Source: Microvirga thermotolerans (lineage in GTDB: Bacteria > Pseudomonadota > Alphaproteobacteria > Rhizobiales > Beijerinckiaceae). From it: a DNA stretch of 64,000 bases. Below the pieces are notes generated by a model, which saw nothing but the letters and a program-made list of their open reading frames with translations, was not told the DNA's origin and did not search any database. This document shows positions 3 through 37,276 of the stretch, piece after piece; position 1 is the first letter of the stretch; every line of letters starts with the position of its first letter. Both the position numbers and the translations under genes were made by a program. The stretch is from contig NZ_CP045423.1 in NCBI RefSeq assembly GCF_009363855.1, positions 1,580,001-1,644,000 on the forward strand. The letters run 5' to 3'.

Positions 3-2896
<2,894 letters not shown>

Positions 2897-2900
<4 letters not shown>

Positions 2901-10235: not shown

Positions 10236-10245
10236 GGGGAGTGCC

Positions 10246-12248: not shown

Positions 12249-12266
12249 TCCAGAAGGGAGAACAAC

Positions 12267-15790: not shown

Positions 15791-15795
15791 AGCCC

Positions 15796-15831
15796 GAAGC
15801 CGGTCCGCCACAGGCCGGCCGCGCCGGCTTC
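15796..15831 (+). terminator. GC-rich hairpin just after the CocE-type gene
   Basis: GAAGCCGG (15796-15803) pairs with CCGGCTTC (15824-15831) a few bases after the operon's last stop codon. There is no clear T run, so intrinsic termination is only likely. Confidence 0.45.
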
Positions 15832-15862
15832 GCCTCCCATAAGGAATCCTGCGCAAGAGGAT

Positions 15863-15888
15863 CGGGCGGGAATTCGAATTTCCGCCCG
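15863..15888. terminator. Second hairpin with arms CGGGCGGGAA / TTTCCGCCCG
   Basis: An almost perfect stem around a TTCGAA centre, 70 bases downstream of the operon end. It may reinforce termination or be a remnant end of the mobile element to its right. Confidence 0.35.
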
Positions 15889-16143
15889 CTGCCCATGTTC
15901 CGGCTGCGAGCCTCTTTCACGCAAGACTCGTTCTCGCCTCGGTGTTCGAGGGTTCGCCACGAGTATGGGCGCGGAGACGCGCCACATGGCAGCTCGTCGA
16001 CGGCTCCCGCCCTTCGAAAGCCCTGTCCAAGAGGTCGAGAATCCCTCTTCGGAAGGTTCGCAGGCGCGCGTCCCGTCACGATATTGCCGAAGGTCCATGT
16101 TCCTCCGGCTCGACCGATCTCGGTCGCTCACGGACTGGTCCCG

Positions 16144-16343
16144 ATGAGCTATCGCTGGAACAGCCGTCTGCGGGTGATGACGGACAACGGACCGGGTTCC
16201 GTCGCGCGGCTGCTCCGGAAGCGCTGCGGCTGCTTTGGATCCGACGCATCCGCACCCGTCCTTCCACGCCCAAGACCAGCGGCCAGGCCAGGCGCTTCAT
16301 CCAGATGCCGCGTCACCTCAAGGCCGCATCCGTGGCGATGTGA
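16144..16343 (+). pseudogene. Decayed IS481-type transposase fragment
   Basis: Two frames together give the catalytic-core signature of IS481-family DDE transposases. RVMTDNG (16171-16191) carries the second Asp of the triad. After a frameshift, IRRIRTRPSTPKTSG followed by QARRFIQ (about 16239-16309) corresponds to the usual H(I/L)RTRPYTPKTNGKAERFIQ, with the triad Glu replaced. The first third of the protein and the terminal repeats are not recognisable. It is a dead remnant, not a mobile element. The rest of 15889-16539 holds nothing else I can support. Confidence 0.72.
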
Positions 16344-16539
16344 GGAGGTGAGCGAGGGCCAGCGCTCCTGCTCCAGGCTGAGGCGGGCTGGAGAAGAAGA
16401 GACGGCGATCGGATTGGGGGTAAACCTGTTTTGACGGGGGAAGCAGGAGGCTGGCCGGGCTCACGCCTCGAAGACTTGCCCCACCGGTAAGGAAGCTTTT
16501 AGGCTCTGAGCAATGCTCGCATCCGAAGGACATTCGCGA

Positions 16540-17451
16540 ATGAACCTGCGTTTCGTTGAAACGTTTCTGTGGGTCGCGAGGCTGGGGAGCTTCAGCGCAG
16601 CGGCTGAGAGACTTCACACGACGCAGGCGGCGATCTCGAACAGAATTGCTACGCTGGAGCGGGATCTCGGGGTGCGGCTCTTCGAGCGGGACGTTCGTTG
16701 TGTCCGCCTCACCGGACTGGGGCAGCAGCTTCTTCCGAAGGCCGAGGAGCTGGTGCGGGTCGCCGGCGAGTTCCGGGAGGCCGTGAGCGATCCCAGCATC
16801 CTTCGGGGGTCGATCAAAATCGGCACGATCGACTCCATCGTCCATGCCTGGCTGCCGCAGTTCATCGACCGGATCCGCGCACGCTATCCGAGCGTCGCCA
16901 TCGACCTCAACACGGACACGAGCCTCAACATCGCCCGCGAGGTCGCCGAACGGCGCATCGACCTCGCGCTCATCATGGGCCCGGTGATCGCACCCGACAT
17001 CATCAATCTCGACTTGTGCACCTTCGCGTGCACGTGGCTCGCCAGTCCGAAGCTCGGGCTGCCGGACAGGCCCCTGGCCCTGGCGGAGATCGCCGACCAT
17101 CCCATCCTGGCCTATTCCAAGGACAGCGTTCCCCATCACCGCATCCTGCGACAGCTCGCGGATGCAGGGATCGAGGATCCGACGATCTACAATTCGAACT
17201 CCCTTGCCACCATCATCCGGCTGGCGCAGGACGGGATCGGCATCACGCCGCTCCCGAGGGTGATCGTGCGGGAGCAGCTCGCGGCCGGGACGCTCGTGCC
17301 GCTCGACGTGACCCCAGCCTTTCCCCCCTTGAGCTTCCATGCGGTCTATTCCGACCATCCCGACAACCTCATTTCGGCTGTGGTGGCGCGGATGGCTCAG
17401 GAGGTCGCTCAAGGGTTCTCTCAGGCGCAGGCGGACGGGGCTTCCTGGTGA
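16540..17451 (+). CDS. LysR-family transcriptional regulator
   Basis: A 303-residue LysR protein: winged helix (MNLRFVETFLWVARLGSFSA, recognition helix TTQAAISNRIATLE) and an effector domain (about 90-295) with GSIKIGTIDSIVHAWLP. I chose the ATG at 16540 because GAAGGA lies about ten bases upstream and the LysR homology begins there; a start nine codons earlier (16513) is possible. It is transcribed in the same direction as, and 131 bases before, the nitrilase-to-sulfatase block, so it is the best candidate regulator of that block, although LysR genes are more often divergent. Confidence 0.9.
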   Translation: MNLRFVETFLWVARLGSFSAAAERLHTTQAAISNRIATLERDLGVRLFERDVRCVRLTGLGQQLLPKAEELVRVAGEFREAVSDPSILRGSIKIGTIDSIVHAWLPQFIDRIRARYPSVAIDLNTDTSLNIAREVAERRIDLALIMGPVIAPDIINLDLCTFACTWLASPKLGLPDRPLALAEIADHPILAYSKDSVPHHRILRQLADAGIEDPTIYNSNSLATIIRLAQDGIGITPLPRVIVREQLAAGTLVPLDVTPAFPPLSFHAVYSDHPDNLISAVVARMAQEVAQGFSQAQADGASW

Positions 17452-17582
17452 GCCGATGGCGACGCACCCCTCTTGTGCGACGCACCACAAGGAAAACTTG
17501 GGCTCCAGGCAAAGTATTTCGTGTTTGTCCAGGCTCGAGAGACGCGCTCACATTCGGCCACAGGTTCAATGGAGGCCGTGAC

Positions 17583-18389
17583 GTGAAAGTCAGTTTAGTT
17601 CAGATGAATTCCCAGAACAACAAGGCGGAAAACCTCAAGACCGCCGCCGCGATGATCGAGAAGGCGGTCGCCGAGGAGAAGCCCGACCTCATCGTGCTTC
17701 CGGAATATTACGCTTATCTCGGCGAGGGCCGTGACAATATCCACGACAATGGCGAGGCCTTCCCCGAGGGTGAATCCTACAAGCTGATGTCCGGCCTCGC
17801 CGCCAGGCATGGGGTGACGATTCACGCCGGCAGCGTCGTCGAGAAGCACGGCAACAATCACTACAACACGACCGTCGTGTTCGGCCCGAGCGGCGACGAG
17901 ATCGCCCGCTACCGCAAGATCCACCTGTTCGACGTCGACGTTCCCGGCGGCATGAGCTACCGCGAGTCGGACACGATCAGCCGCGGCCAGGACGTGGTGA
18001 CCTACAAGGTCGGCGACGTGACCGTCGGCTGCGCGATCTGTTACGATATCCGCTTTCCCGAGCTCTTCCGCAAGCTGCGCGATGCGGGCGCCGAGGTGAT
18101 CGTGCTGCCTGCCGCGTTCACCCTGATGACCGGCAAGGACCATTGGGAGACGCTGGCGCGCGCCCGGGCGATCGAGACCCAGACCTATTTCCTCGCGGTC
18201 GGACAGGTCCTCTCCCATGCGGACGGCAAGAAGTGGTGCTGGGGACATTCCATGGTGATCGACCCGTGGGGACATATCGTGGCCCAGTGCTCCGACAGGG
18301 TCGCGAGCACCAGCGCGCGCCTCGATCTCGACTATGTCGGCCACGTGCGTCGCAACGTGCCGGTCGCCCAGCACCACGTCCTGGCTTGA
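17583..18389 (+). CDS. Carbon-nitrogen hydrolase (nitrilase superfamily)
   Basis: The GTG at 17583 gives a 268-residue protein that begins exactly at the family N-terminus (MKVSLVQMNSQNNKAENL). The catalytic triad is complete: E41 in LIVLPEYYAYLG, K112 in YRKIHLFDVDV and C153 in GCAICYDIRFPEL. It is cytoplasmic, and the family hydrolyses amides, ureido groups or nitriles. The CYDIRFPELFR context is closest to omega-amidase/Nit-type and N-carbamoyl amidohydrolases rather than true nitrilases. It is the first gene of a co-directional block with an importer and a sulfatase, so it may trim an amide from the imported compound; that is inference. Confidence 0.88.
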   Translation: MKVSLVQMNSQNNKAENLKTAAAMIEKAVAEEKPDLIVLPEYYAYLGEGRDNIHDNGEAFPEGESYKLMSGLAARHGVTIHAGSVVEKHGNNHYNTTVVFGPSGDEIARYRKIHLFDVDVPGGMSYRESDTISRGQDVVTYKVGDVTVGCAICYDIRFPELFRKLRDAGAEVIVLPAAFTLMTGKDHWETLARARAIETQTYFLAVGQVLSHADGKKWCWGHSMVIDPWGHIVAQCSDRVASTSARLDLDYVGHVRRNVPVAQHHVLA

Positions 18390-18400
18390 GGAGAGCGACC

Positions 18401-19072
18401 ATGTTCACCGTCAACCCCATGCCGCAGCAGATCTCCCGGGAGCTGGTCGACCTGCTGGAGAAGGTCGAAACGGCGACCGTCGGTCACTTCCTGCATTCCG
18501 GCTTCGTCGATCGCGAGTTGCGCGCGGTCCTTCCCGACAAGCGCGTCGCCGGGACCGCCGTCACGGTGCGCCTGCCTCATGCCGACAGCACGATTCTGCA
18601 CTACCTGACGAAGCTCGTCCGGCCTGGGGACGTCGTGGTCGTGGACCGCTGCGGCGACGACAAGCATGCCTGCTGGGGCGGCGTGATCACCCATTCCATG
18701 AAGATGGCGGGCGTGAAGGCCGGCGTCGTCGACGGCCCTGCGACCGACTTCTCGGAGATCCGCCGGGTCGAGATGCCCATGTGGTGCCGCGGCCCGTCGC
18801 CGATCACCACCAAGATCCTCGGGCTCGAGGGTGCGATCAACGTGCCCGTCACGGTGGGCGGCCAGGTGATCGAGCCGGGCGATGCGATCCTCGCGGACGA
18901 GAGCGGCGTCCTCGTGCTCAAGCCGGAGGAGGCGAAGGCGGTCGCCGAACGGGCGATCGGCATGCAGGAGAACGAGATCAAGCTGCTGGAGCGGCTTCGC
19001 AGCGGCGAGAAGCTGCCGGACATCTCCGGCGCGACCCGCCTCGTGGAAGAGAAGGCCCGGCGCGTCGCCTGA
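18401..19072 (+). CDS. RraA-like/HMG-CHA aldolase family protein with altered active site
   Basis: The ATG at 18401, preceded by GAGGAGAG, opens a 223-residue protein of the RraA fold (dimethylmenaquinone methyltransferase-like annotation). Family landmarks are present: TATVGHFLHSGFVDREL, VRLPHADSTIL, RPGDVVVVDRCGDD, GGVITHSMKMAGVKAGVVDG and GDAILADESGVLVL. Members acting as 4-hydroxy-4-methyl-2-oxoglutarate/4-carboxy-4-hydroxy-2-oxoadipate aldolases use an Arg-Asp pair directly after VxDG. Here the sequence is DGPATD, with Thr in place of Arg, so a standard aldolase reaction is doubtful. It lies 11 bases after the nitrilase gene and ahead of the transporter, which points to a metabolic rather than an RNase-inhibitor role. 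Confidence 0.82.
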   Translation: MFTVNPMPQQISRELVDLLEKVETATVGHFLHSGFVDRELRAVLPDKRVAGTAVTVRLPHADSTILHYLTKLVRPGDVVVVDRCGDDKHACWGGVITHSMKMAGVKAGVVDGPATDFSEIRRVEMPMWCRGPSPITTKILGLEGAINVPVTVGGQVIEPGDAILADESGVLVLKPEEAKAVAERAIGMQENEIKLLERLRSGEKLPDISGATRLVEEKARRVA

Positions 19073-19122
19073 CGCGCCGGTTCGAGAAGCGCAATCAGAG
19101 ACAGACAGAGGGACCAATGACC

Positions 19123-20175
19123 ATGAAGACGTTGCGTATTCTGCTCGGCGCCTCGGCGGCCGCTTTCGTTGCCGTGTCGTCCGCCTCGGCCCAGACGAAG
19201 ACGGTGACGCTCGCCGCCTATAGCGGCATTTTCCAGGATCATTACACCAAGGCGGTGATCGAGCCGTTCATGAAGGCGCACCCGGACATCAAGGTGCAGT
19301 TCTACGCCATGCCGAACTCGGCGCAGATGCTCGGCACCCTGCGTGCCCAGAAGGCCGCACCGCAGATCGACGTCATGATCATGGACGTGTCGGTCTCCAA
19401 GGCGGCGACGGACGAAGGCCTTTTCGACAAGATCGACGAGAGCGTGTCGAAGAACGTGGCGGACCTCTATCCGGCGGCCCGGATCGAGGGCGTGGGCGGC
19501 GTCGCCGTAACCTTCGACAATCTCGTGCTGCTTTACAACAAGGACCAGGTGAAGGCAGCGCCGACCTCCTGGAACGCCCTCTGGGACAAGCAGTATGCGG
19601 GCAAGGTGGCGATTCCGGCCGTACCGGACATCCAGGGCACGACCCTCACGATCATCGCCAACAAGATGGCCGGGCAGGACGACTACAAGAAGAGCGTCGA
19701 GCCTGGCATCAAGAAGCTGGGAGAACTCGCTCCCAACGTCCAGACCTGGGATCCGAAGCCGGACGTCTATACGCCCATCGCCAACGGGCAGGCGGCGCTC
19801 GGGATCGGCTGGAACGCACGTGCCCAGGTCTACTCGGATACGTCCGGCGGAAAGCTCGGCGTCGTGCTGCCGGAGGAGGGCAGCGCGTTCCAGATCAACA
19901 CGATCAACCTGGTGAAGAACGCCCCGGCGGGCGACGCGGCCAAGACTTTCATCGACTATGCCCTCAAGCCGGAGACACAGGCGGCCTTCACCGAGGCGAT
20001 GTTCTACGCGCCGACCAACAAGAAGGCGCAGGAGAAGATCTACAAGGAGGCCCTGGCCCGCACGGCCGCCGGCGCGATGGACAGGATGATCGCCATCGAC
20101 TGGATCGCCGTGGCCGGCATTCGCGACGCGATCACCGAGCAGTGGCGCCGCCGCGTCATTCCGCTGAGCCGGTGA
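19123..20175 (+). CDS. Periplasmic solute-binding protein, spermidine/putrescine or iron type
   Basis: A precursor of about 350 residues with a Sec signal peptide (MKTLRILLGASAAAFVAV through SASAQ) and the family 1/8 binding-protein fold: KTVTLAAYSGIFQDHYTKAV, GGVAVTFDNLVLLYNKDQVK, SWNALWDKQYAGKVAIP and PEEGSAFQINTINLVKNAPA. I prefer the ATG at 19123 because AGAGGGA is nine bases upstream; the ATG at 19117 is only three bases from it. It delivers ligand to the ATPase and two permeases encoded next. The PotD/Fbp-like type covers polyamines, ferric ion, 2-aminoethylphosphonate and small organic anions, so the ligand is open; a sulfate ester or its amide is suggested by the downstream sulfatase. 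Confidence 0.9.
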   Translation: MKTLRILLGASAAAFVAVSSASAQTKTVTLAAYSGIFQDHYTKAVIEPFMKAHPDIKVQFYAMPNSAQMLGTLRAQKAAPQIDVMIMDVSVSKAATDEGLFDKIDESVSKNVADLYPAARIEGVGGVAVTFDNLVLLYNKDQVKAAPTSWNALWDKQYAGKVAIPAVPDIQGTTLTIIANKMAGQDDYKKSVEPGIKKLGELAPNVQTWDPKPDVYTPIANGQAALGIGWNARAQVYSDTSGGKLGVVLPEEGSAFQINTINLVKNAPAGDAAKTFIDYALKPETQAAFTEAMFYAPTNKKAQEKIYKEALARTAAGAMDRMIAIDWIAVAGIRDAITEQWRRRVIPLSR

Positions 20176-20212
20176 CGCGCCTGCCGCAGCCGAAGGCCCG
20201 CTGGAGAACGCC

Positions 20213-21331
20213 ATGATGCATCAGACCATCCGTACAGGGAGCCCGACCGTGTCGGGCGACCGCGCCGTGCACCTGCAGCTCGATGGGCTCACGAAACGTT
20301 ACGGCGATTCCGTCGCCGTGGCGGCGCTGGATCTGGCGGTCCCGAAAGGGGAGCTCGTGGCGCTCCTGGGGCCATCCGGCTGCGGCAAGACAACGACGCT
20401 GCGCATGGTGGCCGGTCTCATCCGGCCGTCGGCCGGGCGCATCGTCGTAGGGTCGCAGGACATCACGGCGATGCCGCCCTACCGGCGCGACATGGGGCTC
20501 GTGTTCCAGTCCTACGCGTTGTTCCCGCACATGACGGTGGCCAGGAACGTGGCCTTCGGCCTGGAGATGCGCTCCGTGCCGAGGCCCGAAATCGAACGGC
20601 GGGTGAAGGAGGCCCTCGCCATGGTGCGGCTCGAGGCGCTGGCCGAGCGCAGGCCGCGCGAGCTGTCCGGCGGCCAGCAGCAGCGGGTGGCGCTCGCCCG
20701 TGCCCTCGTGATCCGTCCTTCGATCCTGCTCCTCGACGAGCCGCTCTCCAATCTCGACGCGAAGCTGCGCGACGAGATGCGCAACGAGATCCGCGACATC
20801 CAGCAGAGCCTGGGCATCACCGCCGTCTTCGTCACGCACGATCAGGTGGAGGCGCTCAGCATGTGCGACAAGGTCGTCGTCATGCGCGGCGGCAAGCTCG
20901 AGCAGGTGGGAACGCCGGTCGATGTCTACGAGCATCCCGCGACTCCGTTCGTCGCGTCCTTCGTGGGCCGCACGAATCGGCTGGAGGGACAGGCGCAGGG
21001 CGACGGGCGCGTCGTCATCGGTGCCATGGAGGTGCGCGTGCCTGGCCGGCCCGGCGGTAGGGTCGAGGTCATGGTTCGCCCGCACCGCATGAATCTGGTC
21101 GAGGCTGTCTCCGGCGGGGAGAGGGCCGCGGAAGGGACGAACCGTCTCGAAGGGCGCCTTGTGCGCGTCACCTTCGTGGGCGACCTGCTCCAGTACCACG
21201 TGGACGTCGGAGGAGCGGAGATCGTCGTCGAGAAGGCCTCGGATCACGGCCGCGGCTTCCTGGCGGTGGGAACGCCGGTCGCGGTCCTGTGGCGCGTCGA
21301 CGACACCATGGTGTTCGGGAGGGGGGCATGA
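20213..21331 (+). CDS. ABC transporter ATPase, PotA-like
   Basis: A 372-residue ATPase with Walker A GPSGCGKTT, Q-loop VFQSYALFPHMTV, signature [15 protein letters not shown], Walker B ILLLDEPLSNLD and switch VTHDQVEALS, followed by a C-terminal TOBE/OB domain (about 250-370; VMVRPHRMNL, RVTFVGDLLQYHVDV) characteristic of polyamine- and iron-type importers. The domain order and its pairing with PotB- and PotC-like permeases define a classical four-component importer. The stop codon overlaps the next permease start (ATGA). Confidence 0.92.
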   Translation: MMHQTIRTGSPTVSGDRAVHLQLDGLTKRYGDSVAVAALDLAVPKGELVALLGPSGCGKTTTLRMVAGLIRPSAGRIVVGSQDITAMPPYRRDMGLVFQSYALFPHMTVARNVAFGLEMRSVPRPEIERRVKEALAMVRLEALAERRPRELSGGQQQRVALARALVIRPSILLLDEPLSNLDAKLRDEMRNEIRDIQQSLGITAVFVTHDQVEALSMCDKVVVMRGGKLEQVGTPVDVYEHPATPFVASFVGRTNRLEGQAQGDGRVVIGAMEVRVPGRPGGRVEVMVRPHRMNLVEAVSGGERAAEGTNRLEGRLVRVTFVGDLLQYHVDVGGAEIVVEKASDHGRGFLAVGTPVAVLWRVDDTMVFGRGA

Positions 21332-22209
21332 CGGCCGTCGCAGCCTCCGCAGGGCCCGCGATGCCGCGTCCGGTCCTCGACCGGGCGGGAACGGCGACCC
21401 TGCTTCTGCTCCCCATCGCGCTCATCAACACGGCCGGCTTCATCCTGCCGGTCCTCAACCTTTTGCGGATGTCGTTCAACGAGGCCCTTGCCGGCGGCGG
21501 CGTGCGCGAGACCGTGACCCTCGCCAACTGGATCGGCCTCTTCGGCGATTCCTTCTATGTGGAACTCATCGTCAATTCGATCGCTGTGAGCCTCGGCATC
21601 ACGCTGGCGACCCTCGTGGTGTCGTATCCGATTGCGCTCTACCTCCACCGCAGCTCGGGACGCTGGCGCACCTTCCTGACCGTGCTGGTCATCTCGCCGC
21701 TCCTCACCTCGGCCGTCGTGCGCACCTATGGCTGGATCGCGCTGCTCGCCGACCAGGGCCCCATCGTCGGAGCCCTCGCGGCGCTGGGAACTACGCCTCC
21801 GCGGCTCATGTTCAATACGACGGGCGTCGTCATCGGCCTCACCGAGATCCTGATGCCCTACATGATCCTGTCCCTTCTCGCCGGTTTCGGCCGTCTCGAC
21901 CCGCGGGTGGAGGAGGCGGCGATGACCCTCGGCGCCCCGCCCGCCAAGACCTTCTGGCGGGTGATCCTGCCGCTGACCATTCCCGGAATTGCGCTCGGAT
22001 GCCTTCTCTGCTTCGTGCTGGCGGTCTCCTCCTTCATCACGCCGAAGCTGCTCGGGGGCGGGCGGGTCTTCCTGCTCGCGACGGAGATCTACGACCAGGC
22101 GATCGTCACCCTGAATTGGCCGCTCGCCGCGACGCTCTCGATGCTCGTGCTGATCATCTTCGGAGCCGCACTCGCCGCCTATGCCCGCGTCCTTCGCGCC
22201 ATCGACTAG
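21328..22209 (+). CDS. ABC transporter permease, PotB-like
   Basis: The ATG at 21328 overlaps the ATPase stop and follows GGAGGGGGG. The 293-residue product has about six membrane helices, an N-terminal cytoplasmic segment, a first helix near 25-50 (LLLPIALINTAGFILPVLNLL) and the EAA motif EEAAMTLGAPPAKTFWRVILPL near residues 195-215, as in PotB-type subunits. It forms the pore with the PotC-like subunit nine bases downstream. Confidence 0.91.
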   Translation: MTAVAASAGPAMPRPVLDRAGTATLLLLPIALINTAGFILPVLNLLRMSFNEALAGGGVRETVTLANWIGLFGDSFYVELIVNSIAVSLGITLATLVVSYPIALYLHRSSGRWRTFLTVLVISPLLTSAVVRTYGWIALLADQGPIVGALAALGTTPPRLMFNTTGVVIGLTEILMPYMILSLLAGFGRLDPRVEEAAMTLGAPPAKTFWRVILPLTIPGIALGCLLCFVLAVSSFITPKLLGGGRVFLLATEIYDQAIVTLNWPLAATLSMLVLIIFGAALAAYARVLRAID

Positions 22210-22218
22210 GAGCCTGCC

Positions 22219-23013
22219 ATGGAATCCCATGAAACGTCCTGGCCCATGAAGCTCCTCGTGGCGCTGATGTTCCTGTTCCTTCTGGCCCCCGTGATCCTCG
22301 TGGTGCCGATCTCGTTCAGCGGGGAACAGATCCTCTCGTTCCCGCCGGCGAGCTGGTCGCTGCGCTGGTATGCGGCGCTCGCCCACAGTCCGGAGATCAT
22401 CTCCGCTTTCTGGACGAGTCTCGTGCTGGGCACGATCGTGACGGTCATATCCCTCGCCGTCGCGGTGCCGGCCGCCTACGTGATCGTCCGGATGCGCACG
22501 TTCGGCTCCGCCTTTCTCTACAACCTCTTCACGGCCCCCCTGCTGCTGCCGACCATCGTCCTGGGGCTTGCGATCCTCATCGTCTTCGCCTCGGCCGGTT
22601 TCCTCGGTACGTTTCCCGGGCTCGTCGTCGGCCATCTCGTCATCACGCTGCCCTATGCGCTGCGCGTCCTCGCCACGACCTTGGGCAATCTCAACCTCGC
22701 CTGCGAGGAGGCAGCCTCCACGCTCGGGGGGCGTCCCCTGACGGTATTCCGCCGCGTGACGCTGCCCATGATGGCGCCCGGCATCGTGGCCGCGACCGCC
22801 CTGTGTTTCCTCGTCTCCTTCGACGAGGTCGTGATCACGCTTTTCCTCACGGGGCCGCGCCTGACGACCTTGCCGGTGGAGCTTTTCCACCATGTGGAGA
22901 GCCGCGCCGACCCGCTCGTCGCCAGCGTGTCGGTGCTGCTGATCCTTCTGACCCTGGCCGTGGTGATGGTCGTCGACCGTACGGTCGGCTTGTCAAGAAC
23001 CTTCGTGAAGTGA
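22219..23013 (+). CDS. ABC transporter permease, PotC-like
   Basis: A 264-residue permease with six predicted helices, the N-terminal PMKLLVALMFLFLLAPVILV helix, SFSGEQILSFPPASWSLRWY as in PotC proteins, and the EAA loop EEAASTLGGRPLTVFRRVTLP. It is the last transporter subunit. A 215-base gap follows before the formylglycine-generating enzyme gene, with no terminator I can recognise, so readthrough into the sulfatase genes is possible. Confidence 0.91.
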   Translation: MESHETSWPMKLLVALMFLFLLAPVILVVPISFSGEQILSFPPASWSLRWYAALAHSPEIISAFWTSLVLGTIVTVISLAVAVPAAYVIVRMRTFGSAFLYNLFTAPLLLPTIVLGLAILIVFASAGFLGTFPGLVVGHLVITLPYALRVLATTLGNLNLACEEAASTLGGRPLTVFRRVTLPMMAPGIVAATALCFLVSFDEVVITLFLTGPRLTTLPVELFHHVESRADPLVASVSVLLILLTLAVVMVVDRTVGLSRTFVK

Positions 23014-23228
23014 GAGCCTTTCAGGCCTCGCCCGAACAGGCGGGATATCCTCGGCGTCGGCCGTCGCCTGCCCAGGTTCGTGCCTATGGAAGAACGAGCG
23101 GCGCATCCGCTCCGGCACGCCCGCCGTCCTGATCGGTCAACGAATTGTCCACTCCGGTCAAGCAGCTGCGCACGATCCGTGTGAGATTGCCCGATGTCAT
23201 CGCCGATGTCTTGGAGTGGAAACCGAAT

Positions 23229-24230
23229 ATGTCCGTCATGGACGGCAATCCCTTGGCCGGAACCCACAGCCGCAGCCTGCCGCGACCCGGCATGGTCTGG
23301 CTTCCCGGCGGCACGTTCCGCATGGGTTCGGACCGGCATTATCCCGAGGAGGCGCCGGTCCACCGCGTGACGGTGGACGGCTTCTGGATGGACGCCGCCC
23401 CGGTCACCAACCGCCAGTTCCGCGCCTTCGTCGCAGCGACGGGACATGTCACGGTGGCGGAGAAGAGGCCCGATCCGAAGGACTATCCCGGCGCGCTGCC
23501 GCACATGCTGAAAGCAGGATCGCTGGTGTTCAGCCCGCCGGACCATCCGGTTCCCCTGAACGACTGGAGCCGATGGTGGGCGTTCGTGTTCGGGGCGAAC
23601 TGGCGCCGCCCCTATGGCCCCGGTTCCTCGATCGAAGGTCTGGACGATCACCCGGTGGTGCACGTCGCCTATCCGGATGCCGAGGCCTATGCCCGCTGGG
23701 CCGGCAAGGAACTGCCGACCGAGGCCGAATGGGAGTTCGCGGCCCGCGGGGGGCTCGATGGAGCCGAGTTCGCCTGGGGCGACGAGCTCACGCCGGACGG
23801 CCGCCACATGGCGAACACCTGGCAGGGCCTCTTCCCGTTCCAGAACAGCCGCGAGGACGGCTACGAGCGCACCTCGCCGGTGAGAGCCTATCCGCCGAAC
23901 GGCTACGGCCTCTACGACATGATCGGCAATGTCTGGGAATGGACGGGCGATTGGTACGAGCCGAAACACCCGGCCGACGCGGCCAAGCCCTGCTGCATCC
24001 CCTCGAACCCGCGCGGCGGGCGTGAGGAGGCGAGCTACGATCCCTGCCAGCCGGAGATCCGGATTCCGCGCAAGGTGCTCAAAGGCGGCTCGCATCTGTG
24101 CGCCCCAAGCTACTGCCGGCGCTACCGCCCGGCGGCCCGCCATCCGGAACCCGTCGATACCTCCACCAGCCATGTCGGCTTCCGCTGCGTGGTTCGGGAG
24201 ACAAGGGGGATGCGGTGCCCGACCCCGTGA
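23229..24230 (+). CDS. Formylglycine-generating enzyme (sulfatase-modifying factor family)
   Basis: A 333-residue FGE/SUMF1-fold protein: PGMVWLPGGTFRMGSD at the N-terminus, APVTNRQFRAFV, LPTEAEWEFAARGG, GNVWEWTGDWY and the C-terminal core KGGSHLCAPSYCRRYRP ending HVGFRCVV. Both active-site cysteines of aerobic, copper-dependent FGEs are present (C291 and C296, spacing Cys-x4-Cys), which separates it from the larger non-catalytic SUMF-like group. There is no signal peptide, so it oxidises the sulfatase cysteine to formylglycine in the cytoplasm. ATG 23229 has GGAG about ten bases upstream; a TTG at 23145 would only add non-homologous residues. The sulfatase two genes on is the obvious client. 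Confidence 0.9.
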   Translation: MSVMDGNPLAGTHSRSLPRPGMVWLPGGTFRMGSDRHYPEEAPVHRVTVDGFWMDAAPVTNRQFRAFVAATGHVTVAEKRPDPKDYPGALPHMLKAGSLVFSPPDHPVPLNDWSRWWAFVFGANWRRPYGPGSSIEGLDDHPVVHVAYPDAEAYARWAGKELPTEAEWEFAARGGLDGAEFAWGDELTPDGRHMANTWQGLFPFQNSREDGYERTSPVRAYPPNGYGLYDMIGNVWEWTGDWYEPKHPADAAKPCCIPSNPRGGREEASYDPCQPEIRIPRKVLKGGSHLCAPSYCRRYRPAARHPEPVDTSTSHVGFRCVVRETRGMRCPTP

Positions 24231-24721
24231 CAGCCAATCAGTTGCTGCTGGCTCGCTTCGTGGTCGTCGTTGCCGCGGTCCTCGTCGGGCTCGGCCTGGT
24301 CTGGTACGGGTTCTCGACCGAGGTCCTGGGGCGGATCTGGCGCAACATCGCCGAGCGGCCCAGCGGCCCCCTGACTTTCCGCTTCGTCCTCCAGCCGACC
24401 ATGGCGGCCATCGTGGCCTTCCGCGACGGGACGACCGACGCACGCCTCAACCGCTCGCCGTACCTGTGGACCCTCCTCACGGACCGGAACGGGAGCGCCG
24501 AGCGCCTGCGCGAGGGGGTGATCGCGACCGCGCGGATCATCCTGTTGGGCTTCGTCATGGACGGGATCTACCAGGCGTTCGTACTCGACGCGTTCTTCCC
24601 GGCCGAGACGGTGCTCGTCGCGATCCTGCTCGCGTTTCTTCCCTACCTTCTCCTGCGAGGGCCGTTCTGCCGCCTTGCCGGGTGGTGGTTACGCCGCAGA
24701 TCCGCCGATGCGGCATCGTGA
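24215..24721 (+). CDS. Small multi-pass membrane protein of unknown function
   Basis: A 168-residue hydrophobic protein. The GTG at 24215 (AAGGGGGA four bases upstream) overlaps the FGE gene by 16 bases; an alternative GTG at 24227 overlaps the stop itself. Hydrophobic segments: about 10-30 (FVVVVAAVLVGLGLVWYGF), 105-125 (IILLGFVMDGIYQAFVLDAF) and 128-150 (VLVAILLAFLPYLLL); the middle region (residues 50-90) is soluble, with RDGTTDARLNRSPYLWTLL. I do not recognise a named family. Tight coupling to the FGE gene and the sulfatase 170 bases on suggest a role in the same pathway, for instance an efflux or anchoring function, but this is speculative. Confidence 0.72.
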   Translation: MPDPVTANQLLLARFVVVVAAVLVGLGLVWYGFSTEVLGRIWRNIAERPSGPLTFRFVLQPTMAAIVAFRDGTTDARLNRSPYLWTLLTDRNGSAERLREGVIATARIILLGFVMDGIYQAFVLDAFFPAETVLVAILLAFLPYLLLRGPFCRLAGWWLRRRSADAAS

Positions 24722-24891
24722 GGAGTGCATCATGCCGACCGCCCGCTCGCACACCGTCCATCGCCGCAGAGGATCCCGCGATGGGCCGCGGCACTGCCGT
24801 CTCGCGCAGGAGTAGCGGACGCGGGGAAAGACAGGCCAGCCAGTGTGTTTGCGTGTTTCGTCCAGCCAGTTCGACCTAGAGGAGGCGTGCA

Positions 24892-26400
24892 ATGGCGAAG
24901 AAACCGAACTTCCTGATCCTATGGGGCGACGATATCGGCCAATCGAACCTGAGCATCTTCACGAAAGGGCTGATGGGCTATCGCACTCCGAACATCGACC
25001 GCATCGGCGAGGAGGGTATGCTCTTCACCGATTACTACGGGGAACAGAGCTGCACGGCGGGCCGTGCGTCCTTCATCACCGGACAGTGCGGGCTGCGCAC
25101 GGGCCTGACCAAGGTAGGCCTGCCGGGCGCCGAACTCGGCATGCGCGCCGAGGACCCGAACATTCCGGAACTGCTGAAGCCGTTGGGATACGTGACCGGC
25201 CAGTTCGGCAAGAACCATTTCGGCGACCGTGACGAGCACCTGCCGACGATGCACGGCTTCGACGAGTTCTTCGGCAACCTCTATCACCTCAACGCCGAGG
25301 AGGAGCCGGAGCTTCCCGACTATCCCAACGAAAAGGATTTCCCCAACTTCAGGAAAAACTTCGGTCCGCGCGGCGTGCTGCACTGCTGGTCGGACGGCAA
25401 GGGCGGACAGAAGATCGAGAACACGGGCCCGCTGACGAGGAAGCGGATGGAGACCGTCGACACCGAGTTCCTCGACGCCGCACAGAGCTTCATCAGGAAG
25501 GCGGCCAAGGACGGTAAGCCCTTCTTCGTCTGGTTCAACACGACGCACATGCACTTCCGCACGCACATCGAGGAACGAATCCGCGGCCAGGCAGGGCGAT
25601 GGCAATCCGAGTATCACGACTGCATGATCGAGCACGACAAGCACATCGGCAGGATGCTCGACCTGCTCGACGAGCTCGGCATCGCCGACGACACGATGGT
25701 CATGTACAGCACCGACAACGGCCCGCACATGAACTCGTGGCCGGATGCCGCCATGACGCCGTTCCGCAACGAGAAGAACTCGATGTGGGAAGGCGCCTAC
25801 CGCGTGCCGTGCCTGGTGCGCTGGCCGGGCGTGGTCAAGCCTGGGACGGTCTGCAACGAGATCGTCAGCCATCTCGATTGGCTGCCGACCATCGTGGAGG
25901 CGGCCGGAGCCCCGGACATCAAGGAGAAGCTCAAGAAGGGCGGATACGAGGCGAACGGCAAGAAGTTCAAGGTTCACATCGATGGCTTCAGCCTCATGCC
26001 GTACTTCACTGGAAAGGCCAAGCAGCACGAGCGGAAGGGGTTCTTCTACTTCACCGATGACGGCGACCTCGCCTGCCTTCGCTTCGATAACTGGAAGTTC
26101 GCCTTTATGGAGCAGCGGGCCCGCGGCACGCTCCAGATCTGGGCCGAGCCGATGGTAACGCTGCGCGTTCCGAAGATCTTCAATCTGCGCACCGATCCCT
26201 ATGAGCGCGCGGACATCACCTCCAACACTTACTACGACTGGCTGCTGGACCACGCCTTCATGCTCGTCCCCGCACAGGCGGGCGTGGCGGAGTTCCTTGG
26301 GACGTTCAAGGATTTTCCGCCGCGTCAGAAGGCGGCAAGCTTCGGCATTGATCAGGTTATGGAAAAGATCATGGAGGCCGCAGGAGGGGGCCACCATTGA
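24892..26400 (+). CDS. Cytoplasmic arylsulfatase (type I, formylglycine-dependent)
   Basis: A 502-residue sulfatase of the alkaline phosphatase superfamily with metal ligands D13-D14 in NFLILWGDDIGQ, the modification site C54-T-A-G-R58 (the Ala variant of CxPxR), the following signature GYVTGQFGKNHFGD, and the second metal pair in YSTDNGPHMNSW. It lacks a signal peptide, so it should hydrolyse sulfate esters after import. This fits the upstream ABC transporter and the cytoplasmic FGE, which is needed to convert C54. A strong AGAGGAGG site lies five bases before the ATG. The physiological ester is unknown. Confidence 0.92.
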   Translation: MAKKPNFLILWGDDIGQSNLSIFTKGLMGYRTPNIDRIGEEGMLFTDYYGEQSCTAGRASFITGQCGLRTGLTKVGLPGAELGMRAEDPNIPELLKPLGYVTGQFGKNHFGDRDEHLPTMHGFDEFFGNLYHLNAEEEPELPDYPNEKDFPNFRKNFGPRGVLHCWSDGKGGQKIENTGPLTRKRMETVDTEFLDAAQSFIRKAAKDGKPFFVWFNTTHMHFRTHIEERIRGQAGRWQSEYHDCMIEHDKHIGRMLDLLDELGIADDTMVMYSTDNGPHMNSWPDAAMTPFRNEKNSMWEGAYRVPCLVRWPGVVKPGTVCNEIVSHLDWLPTIVEAAGAPDIKEKLKKGGYEANGKKFKVHIDGFSLMPYFTGKAKQHERKGFFYFTDDGDLACLRFDNWKFAFMEQRARGTLQIWAEPMVTLRVPKIFNLRTDPYERADITSNTYYDWLLDHAFMLVPAQAGVAEFLGTFKDFPPRQKAASFGIDQVMEKIMEAAGGGHH

Positions 26401-26476
26401 ACCTTCCAAGTTCTGATTGAGCGGTTTGCAGGAGGGACCCGACCAGCAACGGGCTGCGGACAACGACGGCAACAGA

Positions 26477-26502
26477 GCGGCGGGCGGGAATCCGTCCGCC
26501 GC
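26477..26502 (+). terminator. Hairpin GCGGCGGGCGG / CCGTCCGCCGC after the sulfatase gene
   Basis: An 11-bp stem with a single mismatch and a GAAT loop, 77 bases after the sulfatase stop. It is a probable end of the nitrilase-to-sulfatase transcript, although no T run follows. Confidence 0.5.
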
Positions 26503-26586
26503 TCCCGAGACGCGGCATGGTTTGTACGGCCCGTGGCGGGCGCCGTTTTCGTGCTGCGGTTCTGCCAGACGAGGATGATCCTGACG

Positions 26587-27048
26587 ATGGTTGATCCCAA
26601 ACCGAAGTACCCTGTGAGCGATGACGTCTCCGTGGAATTGTCCGCACGCCGGACAGGCATGTCGTTTCAGCGCACCCGCATGAGTGCCGACCGAACCCTG
26701 ATGGCGGTAATCCGGACGTCGCTGTCGCTCATAGGCTTCGGATTTACGATCTTCCAGTTCTTCCAGAGACTACGCGAAGCCGGCACGCTGACACAGGTCG
26801 GCTCCGCCCGGAACTTCGGCATCACCCTGGTCGCGCTCGGCATCCTGATGCTGGTCGGCGGTGTCGTCTATCACATCCAATACATGCTTGGCCTGCGCGC
26901 GCAGCGCAAGGATATGACAAACGCTCGGTTGATCCACGGCGAGAGCGGCTTTCCCGTGTCGCTGACGTTGATCACGGCCGTTCTCCTGCTCGCAACAGGC
27001 GTTGCCGCGATCATCAGCATGATCTTCCAGATCGGGCCCTTCGACTGA
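26587..27048 (+). CDS. DUF202 (YidH-like) inner-membrane protein
   Basis: A 153-residue protein with the DUF202 signature (LSARRTGMSFQRTRMSADRTLMAVIRTSLSL, split here by the usual R-rich N-terminus) and three membrane helices at about 38-58, 75-97 and 125-150. The function of the family is not established. Start ATG 26587 follows AGGATG by suitable spacing. It appears to be an independent transcription unit after the sulfatase terminator. Confidence 0.85.
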   Translation: MVDPKPKYPVSDDVSVELSARRTGMSFQRTRMSADRTLMAVIRTSLSLIGFGFTIFQFFQRLREAGTLTQVGSARNFGITLVALGILMLVGGVVYHIQYMLGLRAQRKDMTNARLIHGESGFPVSLTLITAVLLLATGVAAIISMIFQIGPFD

Positions 27049-27164
27049 GGGGACGTCGGTCCACCCAATCGCAACGCCGGGGTCCAGGATGCCGAACATG
27101 ATGCGACAATCTGGAACGGACCGTATTCCAGCGCAGATTTGGCCTCTTGGGCTTAAGAGGCGCC

Positions 27165-27275
27165 TAAAGCATCGGACGGGCATTCGAACTCATGTCCGAT
27201 GCTCCAAGCTACCGATTTCGATCATCTTTTCGCGCAAGACCGGTTCCCACTTCTCCCGAAAAGGCTCTAGAACCC
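27165..27275. repeat. Second REP-like element: hairpin plus shared ACCGGTTCCCACTT core
   Basis: Begins with a perfect 10-bp inverted repeat, AGCATCGGAC (27168-27177) and GTCCGATGCT (27194-27203), then CGCGCAA-G-ACCGGTTCCCACTT (27231-27252), matching 5004-5025 at 21 of 22 bases, and ends in GGCTCTAGA, whose CTA is the TAG stop of the small minus-strand gene. It looks like a longer mosaic version of the 4994-5042 element. Confidence 0.7.
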
Positions 27276-27488
27276 GCTCCACGGGTTCAGATTGATCGCG
27301 TGCGCCAGCGACTCGAACCGCCGGCTGCAGGCCAGGTGATAGTCGCCGGTCAGCCCCTGGGATCCATCGGGATCGCTCCGGAACTCCACCCGCTTCGTGC
27401 GGTCGTTTGGCAGGATCATGCGCTTGCAGGCTTGGCACAACGGGCCGCTCTGCCCGCCGCCATAAGGAAACTTGTCGTCGAGGAACAC
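27267..27488 (-). CDS. Small Cys/His protein, putative zinc-binding
   Basis: A 73-residue protein with GTG start at 27488 (GGAG six bases upstream; a GTG seven codons earlier is possible). It contains CQAC near the N-terminal third and HLAC near residue 52, a C-x2-C...H-x3-C arrangement suited to one zinc ion, and the segment GLTGDYHLACSRRFESLA followed by INLNPW. I recall similar short hypothetical proteins in Rhizobiales genomes, with no known function. The stop codon lies in the REP-like element. Confidence 0.6.
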   Translation of the reverse strand: MFLDDKFPYGGGQSGPLCQACKRMILPNDRTKRVEFRSDPDGSQGLTGDYHLACSRRFESLAHAINLNPWSGF

Positions 27489-27844
27489 GCAACTCTCCGA
27501 TCTTGTCACAGGCCGCCCGTGTCCCCGGCAGGGCTGCCGCAGACCGACGTTCGGTTGGTTACCAGATCCCCCTCCAACGTTGCTTCACGGCTCTTGTTCC
27601 GGCCAACGCCTTTTGGCGGCAGGCAAATGGCCAAGCACATCATACGTTTAGAGGCTGCGCAGCTTCACCCTCAAGGTTGCCCGCCGCGCCTGCGTGGATC
27701 ACGTGAGAGCCGAACCGGGCCTGTCCGAGCGACCGGTCTGCCCGGCTCCCGGCCAGCACCGTTCCACGTAGGCCGCAAGATCCCATCGCACCCGACGACG
27801 AAGCGGCTCTCCCTCCGTTTTCATCGCCAGTGCGCAATCCGTTC
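27489..27844. other. Gene-free interval
   Basis: About 350 bases between the small Cys/His gene and the decayed adaptor gene. No frame has recognisable protein character and no strong repeat is visible; it is probably eroded DNA continuous with the pseudogene region to its right. Confidence 0.4.
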
Positions 27845-28470
27845 TCAGAAGCCGCTCTCGCGCACCAGCACGGTGACGACACGACGCCAGACCGTTCGAA
27901 GAATACTCGCGGAGCGGCCGCTCAGGTGAACGGTCCCGGGCTGCGCCCGGGTCGTCCGCAGCGGTTGCGAAGTCTCCAGGATGACCCGGTAGAGGGGCAG
28001 TTCCGGAACGACGGCCTCGTCCACATAGGCCTCGATGCGCGCCTGCGAGAGATCGGCGATGGAGGCCAGCTTCTCTCCCTGCTTGACCCATTCGCCCTCC
28101 GCCATGGGATCTGCGAGCTCAACGACGGTTCCCGAGACCGGGGCTCTGATGTCGAGGCGCTCCAGCTCGACGGCGAGCGCGTCCCGCTCGGCTTTCGCTC
28201 CCTCCCATTCGTGGGCGAGAATCCGGGATCGTGCGAGGGATTCCGCGTTCTGCGACGTCGCGGCGATCTGATCCGCCAGGGCCCTTACCTTCCGCTCGGC
28301 CTGCGCGGCCTTGTAGGCGAGATCGGGAGACGTCATGCGGAAGAGGGATCTCTCCCTCGTCGACCGGCGCTTGCGCAAAGGCCGGCTCGCACCAGGCGCG
28401 AGAAGGATGAGGGTCGTAACGGCTGCGCGCTCTACGAGGCTTCGTTTCCTGACGTCTGTTCGGACATGGC
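27845..28470 (-). pseudogene. Frameshifted HlyD-family adaptor (membrane fusion protein)
   Basis: Reading leftwards, AGGAGG precedes an ATG near 28467 (MSEQTSGNEAS followed by TAG), so the original start is still visible. The homology then continues in the other frames: LVERAAVTTLILLA, EGEIPLPH, and MTSPDLAYKAAQAERKVRAL, a helical hairpin. The last frame holds a complete lipoyl/beta-barrel part (LDIRAPVSGTVVELADPMAE, GEKLASIADLSQARIEAYVD) and an apparently native C-terminus, VTVLVRESGF, before the stop at 27845. At least two frameshifts and an early stop make it non-functional. It would have been the periplasmic adaptor of an exporter. Confidence 0.7.
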
Positions 28471-28599
28471 CCTCCTGGAGCTCCGTTGCGGTCGAATGAA
28501 GGCGCCACCACAGCGGCGATGTTCTTCGGGACCGCCTCCAGGTTCGGAACCTCGATCTTGCCCGCCGACCATTCGCGCGACTTCTGCTTGATCGCCGCC

Positions 28600-28840
28600 A
28601 CGAAACTCGGGAGGTTCGCGCTGTCGACTGGGCGCGCTGGTAGCCCTTGCGCGACAGCTGATACTGCTGCGCCGCGAGGTCCGATGGAACGGACAGGGTC
28701 GGCGCGTCGGAAACCGGCGTCACCATGATGGTCACGATGCGCGTTGTTAAGAGTGCGCTCGACGTGCCGTCGGCGAATGCGAAGTCGCCCGGATCCGCCG
28801 AAGGATTGTCGGTGTCGACGAATCCCTCGCTGCCGCGCGG
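28600..28840 (-). pseudogene. Cadherin/VCBS-like repeat fragment fused to eroded sequence
   Basis: Upstream of the decayed adaptor and in the same direction, one frame reads GFVDTDNPSADPGDFAFADG and then IVTIMVTPVSDAPTLSVP, the end of a cadherin- or VCBS-type adhesin repeat (normally VTITVTPVNDAPTLSVP). It runs into QQYQLSRKGYQRAQS and, after a frameshift, into NLPSFVAAIKQKSREWSAGK and EVPNLEAVPKNIAAVV. No intact start is visible. It is probably the tail of a lost secreted repeat protein gene. Confidence 0.5.
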
Positions 28841-28961
28841 GGCTTCATGCGGTGCCCGCGCTCGGGCTGCGCAAGATGATTTGACGAGAATGTCGCAGGC
28901 ACATCGCTTGGCACGATCCCGCCTTCGCGTCCGAGGCTCAGGCGGCGCCTTTCCGCGGAGT

Positions 28962-30074: not shown

Positions 30075-30113
30075 GTCCGTCTCACCTGAAATCTGCGCCG
30101 GTTCCGGAGGGCG

Positions 30114-31676: not shown

Positions 31677-31803
31677 TGCATCCTCCCGTTCCCCGTCATC
31701 GATTCCGCCGGCGAACCCGAGACCGAGATCGCTCGGGTCTGAGAGAATTCGCCTTCGTGCAACAGCTCTGCGGCAGGTTGCCGGCGCTTCATTCTTTTCC
31801 TGA

Positions 31804-31833
31804 AGGGTAGGAGGGCTCGTTCTTTCAAGTCAA
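31804..31833 (-). promoter_or_regulatory. Candidate sigma70-type promoter for the acyl-CoA synthetase gene
   Basis: Read on the minus strand: TTGACT (31833-31828), 18 bases, then TACCCT (31809-31804), about 130 bases before the start codon. It lies in the 274-base gap between the acyl-CoA dehydrogenase and synthetase genes, so the two may be separately transcribed. Confidence 0.35.
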
Positions 31834-31950
31834 GACGAAGGTGCGGGAAGGCAGCGCCGAGCGGCACACGCCGGCACCTCGGTCCGGCGAGCGCTTCGGG
31901 ACGTCGGGAGAGGGGAGGGCGGCCGTATCGTTCGTGTCCCGCCGGGCGGA

Positions 31951-33084: not shown

Positions 33085-33197
33085 CGGCTTCGTCCTTCGG
33101 CTCTGTCCGTTCCCGAGCAATGCGCGGCGGAACGGGTCGGGGCGCCTGGCGCCGTCGAGCCGTCCCCTTGTGCTGCCGGGATCGATGCGGCAGTTCC

Positions 33198-33224
33198 AGG
33201 CCCCGCGCCCGAGGCGCGGGGCCT
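33198..33224 (-). terminator. Strong hairpin after the amino acid-binding protein gene
   Basis: AGGCCCCGCGC (33198-33208) pairs perfectly with GCGCGGGGCCT (33214-33224) around a five-base loop, 18 bases downstream of the binding-protein stop on the minus strand. It separates the amino acid transport operon from the acyl-CoA genes. Confidence 0.65.
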
Positions 33225-33241
33225 TGTCCTTCTCAAGCCGG

Positions 33242-34075: not shown

Positions 34076-34104
34076 TGTGGTCGATCCTTTCCTGGGAACG
34101 TTCT

Positions 34105-34869: not shown

Positions 34870-34872
34870 GGC

Positions 34873-35787: not shown

Positions 35788-35812
35788 CCCGGCTCTCCCC
35801 GTTCGTTCCCGT

Positions 35813-37237: not shown

Positions 37238-37263
37238 TGCCGTTTCCCCCTTGCCCCGCTGAT

Positions 37264-37276
37264 GTTCCAAGGGAAC
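37264..37276. promoter_or_regulatory. Palindrome GTTCC-AAG-GGAAC in the divergent ArgH-like/LysR region
   Basis: A perfect inverted repeat 27 bases upstream of the ArgH-like start codon. Its half-site TTCC/GGAA is the same as in the palindrome at 37310-37326, so both could be contacted by one LysR tetramer. Confidence 0.5.

What the first reader, a model, noticed from the sequence alone, without database searches (positions are those of the whole stretch)
17583..26400. Candidate sulfate-ester assimilation module: nitrilase, RraA-like protein, PotABCD-type importer, FGE, unknown membrane protein and cytoplasmic sulfatase
Nine co-directional genes combine an importer with a matched pair of cytoplasmic maturase (C291/C296) and sulfatase (C54-T-A-G-R58), neither having a signal peptide. 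Known formylglycine sulfatases in Gram-negative bacteria are often periplasmic; here the ester must be imported intact. Inclusion of an amidase and an RraA-fold protein with a changed active site suggests the substrate is a sulfated amide or an aminoalkyl sulfate that is desulfated and further cut. I know of no described pathway with this exact set.
Basis: partly seen in the sequence, partly recalled or inferred. Interest (0 to 1): 0.72.

Follow-up and report, generated by a model that had tools for sequence, protein, structure and literature searches.

The report
Two neighbouring modules, not one pathway
The nine genes are two unrelated gene sets that sit side by side in this soil bacterium, and the sulfatase half belongs to a little-known module in which two membrane proteins accompany a sulfatase that stays inside the cell.

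Summary
All nine genes are real, but they do not form one pathway. Genes 1-6 (nitrilase, RraA-like, PotDABC-type importer) plus an upstream LysR gene are a self-contained operon, found whole in Microvirga, Aminobacter and Shinella without sulfatase or maturase. Genes 7-9 (FGE, membrane protein, sulfatase) plus a DUF202 gene just downstream are a second module, found without importer, amidase or RraA. DNA homology to congeners ends at 23,014 for the first and begins at 23,280 for the second. None of 40 sulfatase loci or 36 membrane-protein loci held amidase, RraA, binding protein or permeases; none of 20 loci of the first module held sulfatase-module genes. New here: in this sulfatase subfamily, lack of a signal peptide goes with the two membrane proteins, present at 33 of 34 signal-less sulfatases and at 0 of 35 with a signal, over at least seven switches on the tree. 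I propose, unproven, that they give a cytoplasmic sulfatase access to its substrate, perhaps as an arginine-lined anion channel like the DUF202 pore of yeast VTC.

The parts
16513..17451 (+). Module A: LysR-type regulator
   Evidence: Pfam HTH_1 and LysR_substrate; LysR next to nitrilase-RraA also in G122, G058, G059, G060, G020, Aminobacter and Shinella
17583..18389 (+). Module A: nitrilase-superfamily amidase; triad E41, K112, C153
   Evidence: Pfam CN_hydrolase; the three residues invariant in 8 of 8 aligned sequences; numbering; that they are the triad is recalled
18401..19072 (+). Module A: RraA-like protein with G94-X20-T115-D116-X2-E119 (Thr where characterised aldolases have Arg)
   Evidence: Pfam RraA-like; Thr aligned to Arg of 3noj and 3k4i; T115 invariant in 15 of 15
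19117..20175 (+). Module A: periplasmic solute-binding protein, PotD-like
   Evidence: Pfam SBP_bac_8; NCBIfam PotD 68.9 bits, far under its cut-off of 582
20213..21331 (+). Module A: ABC transporter ATPase, PotA subfamily
   Evidence: Pfam ABC_tran and TOBE_2; TIGR01187 potA 358.8 over cut-off 355.6
21328..22209 (+). Module A: permease, PotB-like
   Evidence: BPD_transp_1; the ATG at 21328 overlaps the ATPase stop
22219..23013 (+). Module A: permease, PotC-like; last gene of the module
   Evidence: BPD_transp_1; DNA homology to two Microvirga loci ends at 23013 and 23014
23014..23228 (.). Junction between the two modules
   Evidence: No DNA homology to the four loci compared (L110, L085, L104, L065); module A homology ends at 23013/23014, module B homology with L110 starts at 23280; no terminator-like site in it
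23229..24230 (+). Module B: formylglycine-generating enzyme, C291/C296, no signal peptide
   Evidence: Pfam PF03781 288 bits; aligns with human FGE
24227..24721 (+). Module B: uncharacterised membrane protein ('mem'); GTG start overlaps the FGE stop
   Evidence: No Pfam or NCBIfam family at E 0.001; 36 homologous loci; all-helical AlphaFold2 model, mean pLDDT 88
24892..26400 (+). Module B: cytoplasmic type I sulfatase, C54-T-A-G-R58
   Evidence: Pfam Sulfatase; active-site motifs align with arylsulfatase A
26533..27048 (+). Module B: DUF202 membrane protein with Arg ladder R47, R54, R61 (exact start uncertain)
   Evidence: Pfam DUF202 52.7 bits, cut-off 23.4; three Arg invariant in 29 of 29; DUF202 in 32 of 36 mem loci

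Best explanation
The stretch holds two separately inherited modules that happen to be neighbours. Module A (16513-23013) is a catabolic operon: a PotABCD-type ABC importer, an amidase and an RraA-fold enzyme under a LysR regulator, most likely taking up and cleaving a small nitrogen-containing organic acid or amide; nothing found links it to sulfate esters. Module B (23229-27048) is a sulfatase module: FGE converts Cys54 of the sulfatase to formylglycine in the cytoplasm, the sulfatase stays there, and two small membrane proteins ('mem' and DUF202) accompany it in place of secretion. Shown here: the split into two modules, the matched FGE and sulfatase genes, and the statistical tie between the two membrane proteins and signal-less sulfatases. 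Inferred: the maturation step (from the families), and that the membrane proteins let the cytoplasmic sulfatase reach a substrate. A DUF202 anion channel is the version I favour, at about 0.3, over membrane anchoring at about 0.25.
For: Split: 0 of 40, 0 of 36 and 0 of 20 co-occurrences. DNA homology 16474-23014 with a Microvirga lotononidis plasmid (83%), 16540-23013 with congener G122 (78%), 23280-27050 with M. flocculans (85%). The seven-gene module A stands without FGE or sulfatase in Aminobacter and Shinella plasmids. Module B: DUF202 in 32 of 36, sulfatase in 28 of 36, FGE in 22 of 36 mem loci. Signal peptides: of 69 sulfatases, 34 lack one and 33 of those lie at mem or DUF202 loci; 35 have one and 0 of those do. 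At least 7 switches on the tree; 7 independent pairs, mean 6.9 concordant and 0.0 contrary, median sign-test p 0.0156. DUF202 R47/R54/R61 invariant in 29 of 29 at 7-residue spacing, like K24/R31 of Vtc1 in the VTC pore (PMC9911596, passages).
Against: One signal-less sulfatase (L048) has neither membrane gene detected nearby. 8 of 36 mem loci have no sulfatase at the set threshold; two of these are under 10 kb, but six are of full length, and three of those (L139, L141, L143) have no DUF202 or FGE either. DUF202 in general is not a sulfatase partner: of 30 DUF202 loci across the phylum only 2, one of them the window itself, had a sulfatase within about 1.5 kb. No significant fold match for either membrane protein, and the DUF202 model is of middling confidence (pLDDT 77). 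Co-transcription of A and B in this strain is not excluded; no terminator-like site lies in the gap.
Confidence: 0.85

Rival explanations
1. One reading: one nine-gene module in which the PotABCD importer brings in a sulfated amide or aminoalkyl sulfate, FGE and the sulfatase desulfate it, and the amidase and RraA protein finish it.
For: Same strand, a gap of about 215 bp, cytoplasmic sulfatase. Import-first sulfate-ester clusters exist: atsACBR-sftR-atsK-sftP in Pseudomonas sp. UW4 (PMC3596284, passages).
Against: No co-occurrence in 40, 36 and 20 loci; homology break at the gap in congeners; module A complete elsewhere without FGE or sulfatase.
Confidence: 0.04
2. mem and DUF202 anchor the sulfatase at the inner face of the membrane, where it desulfates membrane-bound or amphiphilic sulfate esters; no transport is involved.
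For: Two membrane proteins kept with signal-less sulfatases over at least seven switches; mem has invariant polar residues R52, Q56, D112, Y115, Q116, R144 in 35 of 35 that could form a docking face.
Against: The heptad-spaced invariant arginines along the first DUF202 helix suit an anion path better than an anchor; docking was not tested.
Confidence: 0.25
3. mem and DUF202 export the product (sulfate or desulfated compound) or protect the membrane, and the ester enters by an importer encoded elsewhere.
For: E. coli keeps the signal-less putative sulfatase YidJ with DUF202 protein YidH and a separate putative transporter YidK. A gene annotated 'transporter' in Neorhizobium (L109) has weak homologues (30-36%) at a few signal-less loci: L041, L128, L131, L145.
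Against: The same 'transporter' is found beside many secreted members too. I did not search the mem-first loci for recurring neighbours beyond my query genes, so a linked importer could have been missed.
Confidence: 0.2
4. In this strain alone, the PotABCD importer has been recruited to module B by read-through after chance juxtaposition.
For: Same direction; no terminator-like site seen in the gap.
Against: In M. flocculans module B (85% DNA identity over 23280-27050) has no module A genes within the 14 kb held, so module B does not need them.
Confidence: 0.08

Closest known systems
ats sulfate-ester cluster of Pseudomonas (atsACBR-sftR-atsK-sftP; PMC3596284, passages seen)
   Same: Arylsulfatase and sulfate-ester ABC importer genes in one cluster: a precedent for import before desulfation. 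That the Pseudomonas AtsA is cytosolic is recalled.
   Different: There the importer is annotated as a sulfate-ester/aliphatic-sulfonate ABC system; here it is PotD-like and not linked to the sulfatase in the relatives examined.
E. coli yidFGHIJ (NC_000913)
   Same: Putative sulfatase YidJ, which by reading its N-terminus has no signal peptide, close to DUF202 protein YidH and the (by eye) similar inner-membrane protein YidG.
   Different: No gene annotated as FGE in the stretch shown (YidF is uncharacterised there); YidJ has a CTPAR motif; YidI does not look like mem (by eye).
Yeast VTC polyphosphate polymerase-channel (PMC9911596, passages)
   Same: Cytoplasmic catalytic domain coupled to a membrane channel of five TM1 helices lined by basic residues, some spaced seven apart (K24/R31, K622/R629). 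Diatom Vtc1-3 are listed as DUF202 proteins (PMC7283521, passages).
   Different: VTC makes polyphosphate and moves it into the vacuole; the fold match of the module B DUF202 to a Vtc chain is not significant (E 1.4).
4-carboxy-4-hydroxy-2-oxoadipate aldolase of the RraA fold (3noj)
   Same: Fold, and the D116 and E119 region around the metal site (the motif and its role are recalled).
   Different: Arg replaced by Thr in 15 of 15 sequences, so the same aldolase reaction is doubtful.
LysR-nitrilase-RraA-PotDABC operon on Aminobacter and Shinella plasmids
   Same: Same seven genes, same order (in Aminobacter the LysR is annotated as two pieces).
   Different: None seen; module A is one more copy of this operon, for which I found no described function (one paper search).

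Membership tests
Type I (S1) formylglycine sulfatase | C-x-[P/A]-x-R modification motif | tested here: met
   C54-T-A-G-R58; the motif definition is recalled
Type I (S1) formylglycine sulfatase | Metal and sulfate ligands (DD near the N-terminus, GKxH, DNG) | tested here: met
   DD13-14, GKNHFG from 106, DNGPH from 275; these align with the same motifs of arylsulfatase A and 7aj0; ligand roles recalled
Formylglycine-generating enzyme | Two catalytic cysteines | tested here: met
   C291 and C296 align with the human FGE pair
Import-first sulfate-ester system (AtsRBC type) | Importer genes linked to the sulfatase | tested here: not met
   SBP and permeases in 0 of 40 sulfatase loci and 0 of 36 mem loci
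PotABCD polyamine importer | Equivalog-level match of the binding protein | tested here: not met
   PotD 68.9 bits against cut-off 582; only the ATPase passes a subfamily cut-off
Deaminated glutathione amidase | Equivalog-level match | tested here: not met
   186.1 bits against cut-off 500; the nitrilase triad itself is present
HMG/CHA aldolase | Catalytic Arg of the RD motif | tested here: not met
   Thr115 in 15 of 15, aligned to Arg of 3noj; catalytic role of the Arg is recalled
DUF202 / VTC1-type membrane domain | Pfam PF02656 above cut-off | tested here: met
   52.7 bits, cut-off 23.4
DUF202 / VTC1-type channel | Basic residues spaced seven apart on the first membrane helix | tested here: met
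   R47, R54, R61 in 29 of 29, on predicted helix 30-82; compare PMC9911596
DUF202 / VTC1-type channel | Same fold as a solved Vtc chain | tested here: inconclusive
   Best Vtc match E 1.4, probability 0.57
DUF202 / VTC1-type channel | Oligomeric anion-conducting pore | not testable with these tools
   Needs purified protein
LysR-nitrilase-RraA-PotDABC operon (Aminobacter/Shinella type) | Seven genes, same order and strand | tested here: met
   and G122

The most novel reading that the evidence does not exclude
Module B is a channel-coupled cytoplasmic sulfatase: DUF202 oligomers with a three-arginine ladder, with mem, form an anion pore that passes sulfate esters across the inner membrane to the sulfatase. 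It would be the hydrolytic counterpart of the VTC polymerase-channel, and an evolutionary alternative to secretion to which sulfatases of one subfamily have switched repeatedly.
Probability: 0.2. Interest if true: 0.75.

Novelty: new variant of a known kind. Interest (0 to 1): 0.5.

Why it matters
The proposed nine-gene pathway should not be carried forward as such. The sulfatase half shows a natural experiment: within one subfamily the enzyme is either secreted, or kept in the cytoplasm beside two conserved membrane proteins, with at least seven switches between the states. This gives an uncharacterised membrane family and the DUF202 family a testable role, and could explain how some bacteria use a cytoplasmic sulfatase. 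In the held library no paper that names DUF202 as a whole word (5 papers) also came up in the search for DUF202 with sulfatase (2 papers: in the one I searched through, the terms were other DUFs; the other I did not open); yidJ with yidH gave one genome announcement (listing only).

Tried and rejected
Rejected: one nine-gene pathway. Rejected: DUF202 as a general sulfatase marker (2 of 30 loci; the 30 loci were 30 of 34 match rows from 23 of 150 genomes). Inconclusive: fold searches for mem and DUF202 (no match with E under 0.001); profile search of DUF202 against solved structures (0 matches to E 1; one unrelated match, E 1.6); promoter and terminator scan (no promoter-like site; 3 terminator-like sites against 6.4 in shuffles, none in the gap); Rfam on 15000-28000 (0 matches); papers naming carbon-nitrogen hydrolase with RraA family and operon (0). 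For mem, no Pfam family matched more than 2 of 35 members and the best E-value was 0.0022.

Papers: passages seen of PMC10434189, PMC11345546 (its reference list only), PMC12581299, PMC3596284, PMC9911596 and PMC7283521; all others were seen as listings with the start of the abstract.

Row choices. Of 75 sulfatase match rows outside the window's genome, 46 have 55% identity or more; I fetched the surroundings of 40 of these 46. Of 11 SBP rows outside the own genome the fetched stretches cover 10, of 16 RraA rows 14. Of 73 plasmid records with the RraA protein I opened 5, of 5 with mem 1. Several loci are shortened by contig ends (for example L039 and L044). In the sulfatase tree 7 repeated loci and one identical row were left out; matches under 250 bits were not taken; no row fell under my length limit. 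L110, L129 and L056 were put into their signal-peptide class by reading their N-termini. The class of the others is a hydropathy threshold of my own, not SignalP, and 'near mem or DUF202' was set by locus.
Full report
OBSERVATION. The nine co-directional genes exist where stated with the named families. FGE C291/C296 match the human FGE pair. The sulfatase carries C54-T-A-G-R58 and its active-site motifs align with arylsulfatase A. It starts four residues before its first core strand, behind an AGGAGG, so it has no signal peptide. The RraA-like protein keeps G94-X20-x-D116-X2-E119 but has Thr115 where 3noj and 3k4i have Arg; the Thr is invariant in 15 of 15 sequences. The nitrilase residues E41, K112, C153 are invariant in 8 of 8. 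A LysR gene upstream and a DUF202 gene downstream, on the same strand, were not in the finding.

TWO MODULES. Of 149 genomes of the same family (the window's own included), 49 have the sulfatase at E 1e-60 and 10 the binding protein at E 1e-50. I fetched up to about 19.7 kb around 40 sulfatase matches and looked for every gene: nitrilase, RraA, SBP and both permeases in 0 of 40; an ABC ATPase homologue alone in 9 of 40. In 20 RraA or SBP loci, FGE, mem, sulfatase and DUF202 were found in 0 of 20. In 36 mem loci from public genomes, SBP, permeases, nitrilase and RraA were found in 0 of 36. Some loci are shortened by contig ends. Congener DNA locates the joint: module A matches a Microvirga lotononidis plasmid over 16474-23014 and genome G122 over 16540-23013; module B matches Microvirga flocculans over 23280-27050. 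The stretch between has no match in the four loci compared there.

MODULE A. LysR-nitrilase-RraA-SBP-ATPase-permease-permease occurs in this order in G122, G058 and G059 and in Aminobacter and Shinella plasmids. The nitrilase-RraA pair also sits with a TRAP transporter in Roseinatronobacter and an MFS transporter in Paraburkholderia caffeinilytica, and in G109 with both Opp-type and Pot-type genes. An enzyme pair that keeps company with different importers suggests a catabolic route for a small organic amide or acid (inference, about 0.6). The binding protein is PotD-like but far below equivalog level. Its substrate is unknown, and I found nothing that ties it to sulfate esters.

MODULE B. Among 36 mem loci, DUF202 is present in 32, sulfatase in 28, FGE in 22 and DUF1622 in 13; without the 9 loci that repeat earlier ones, 25, 21, 18 and 11 of 27. 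Of the 8 loci without sulfatase, six are of full length and three of these (L139, L141, L143) lack DUF202 and FGE as well, so distant mem homologues also occur alone. The commonest order is FGE-mem-DUF202-sulfatase; the window and M. flocculans have FGE-mem-sulfatase-DUF202. M. flocculans keeps a fragment of a second sulfatase (about residues 87-215) behind DUF202, which suggests that one sulfatase replaced another inside the module.

SIGNAL PEPTIDES. In the sulfatase-first sample of 40 loci, 8 of 8 main sulfatases beside mem or DUF202 lack a signal peptide, while 31 of the other 32 have one; L048 is the exception. With the mem-first loci, the Neorhizobium plasmid and second copies added, 69 sulfatases were put on a tree: 34 without and 35 with a signal. 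33 of the 34 and 0 of the 35 lie at a mem or DUF202 locus. The tree needs at least 7 switches on well-supported branches. Seven independent pairs give a mean of 6.9 concordant and 0.0 contrary, median p 0.0156, range 0.0156-0.0312. Much of the signal-less set was found through mem, so its share among all sulfatases is not estimated; the 40-locus sample is free of that bias.

MECHANISM. mem has no Pfam family, a confident all-helical model (pLDDT 88) and no fold match. The module's DUF202 proteins have R47, R54 and R61 in 29 of 29, each seven residues apart, on one long predicted helix. In yeast VTC, five TM1 helices form the channel and its wall is lined by, among others, K24/R31 of Vtc1 and K622/R629 of Vtc4, also seven apart (PMC9911596, passages); diatom Vtc subunits are listed as DUF202 proteins (PMC7283521, passages). 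The fold comparison with Vtc is not significant (E 1.4). I therefore favour, at about 0.3, an anion channel that brings sulfate esters to a cytoplasmic sulfatase, over anchoring (0.25) or product export (0.2). Against generalising: of 30 DUF202 loci across the phylum only 2, the window included, have a sulfatase within about 1.5 kb. For it: E. coli YidJ, a putative sulfatase whose N-terminus shows no signal peptide, is encoded near DUF202 protein YidH.

KNOWN SYSTEMS. Import-first sulfate-ester use is not new: Pseudomonas sp. UW4 has an ats cluster with arylsulfatase and ABC importer genes (PMC3596284, passages). The individual enzymes here are ordinary. What I did not find in the held papers is the mem-DUF202-sulfatase tie.

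VERDICT. Observation confirmed; the single-pathway reading is refuted as a conserved pathway; the sulfatase half is a new variant of a known kind with a good open question.

Noticed in passing
window 8362-15790: Opp-type importer genes (oppB, C, D, F, A) followed by an S15/CocE-type hydrolase directly upstream of module A. In G060 (locus L096) opp genes, four of them 57-61% identical, lie near LysR-nitrilase-RraA, so a link to module A is possible; the M. lotononidis homology starts only at 16474.
   Followed up: partly
L110:9823-10227: Fragment of a second, apparently displaced sulfatase behind DUF202 in Microvirga flocculans.
   Followed up: partly
L048:8992-10488: The one signal-less sulfatase of the 69 without mem or DUF202 nearby; by eye a different membrane protein is encoded next to it on the other strand.
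   Followed up: no
13 of 36 mem loci, e.g. L123:9742-10119: A third small gene, DUF1622, recurs near the signal-less sulfatase; no match in window 26001-30000.
   Followed up: partly
L057, L070, L109, L132, L142: DUF3300 and/or DUF2950 genes recur near members of the sulfatase subfamily, secreted (L057, L070) and signal-less (L109, L132), and in a mem-DUF202 locus without sulfatase (L142).
   Followed up: no
G000:C1:3739763-3740425 and G000:C1:277002-277184: A second FGE-domain protein and a second DUF202 protein elsewhere in the window's own genome.
   Followed up: no
window 28962-37270, minus strand: CoA-transferase III, AMP-ligase, acyl-CoA dehydrogenase, SBP_bac_3, ABC ATPase and permease, argininosuccinate-lyase-like protein: looks like an uptake and acyl-CoA catabolic cluster.
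   Followed up: no
window 57-6626: Two large sensor kinases with several receiver domains, then an RTX-repeat protein on the minus strand.
   Followed up: no
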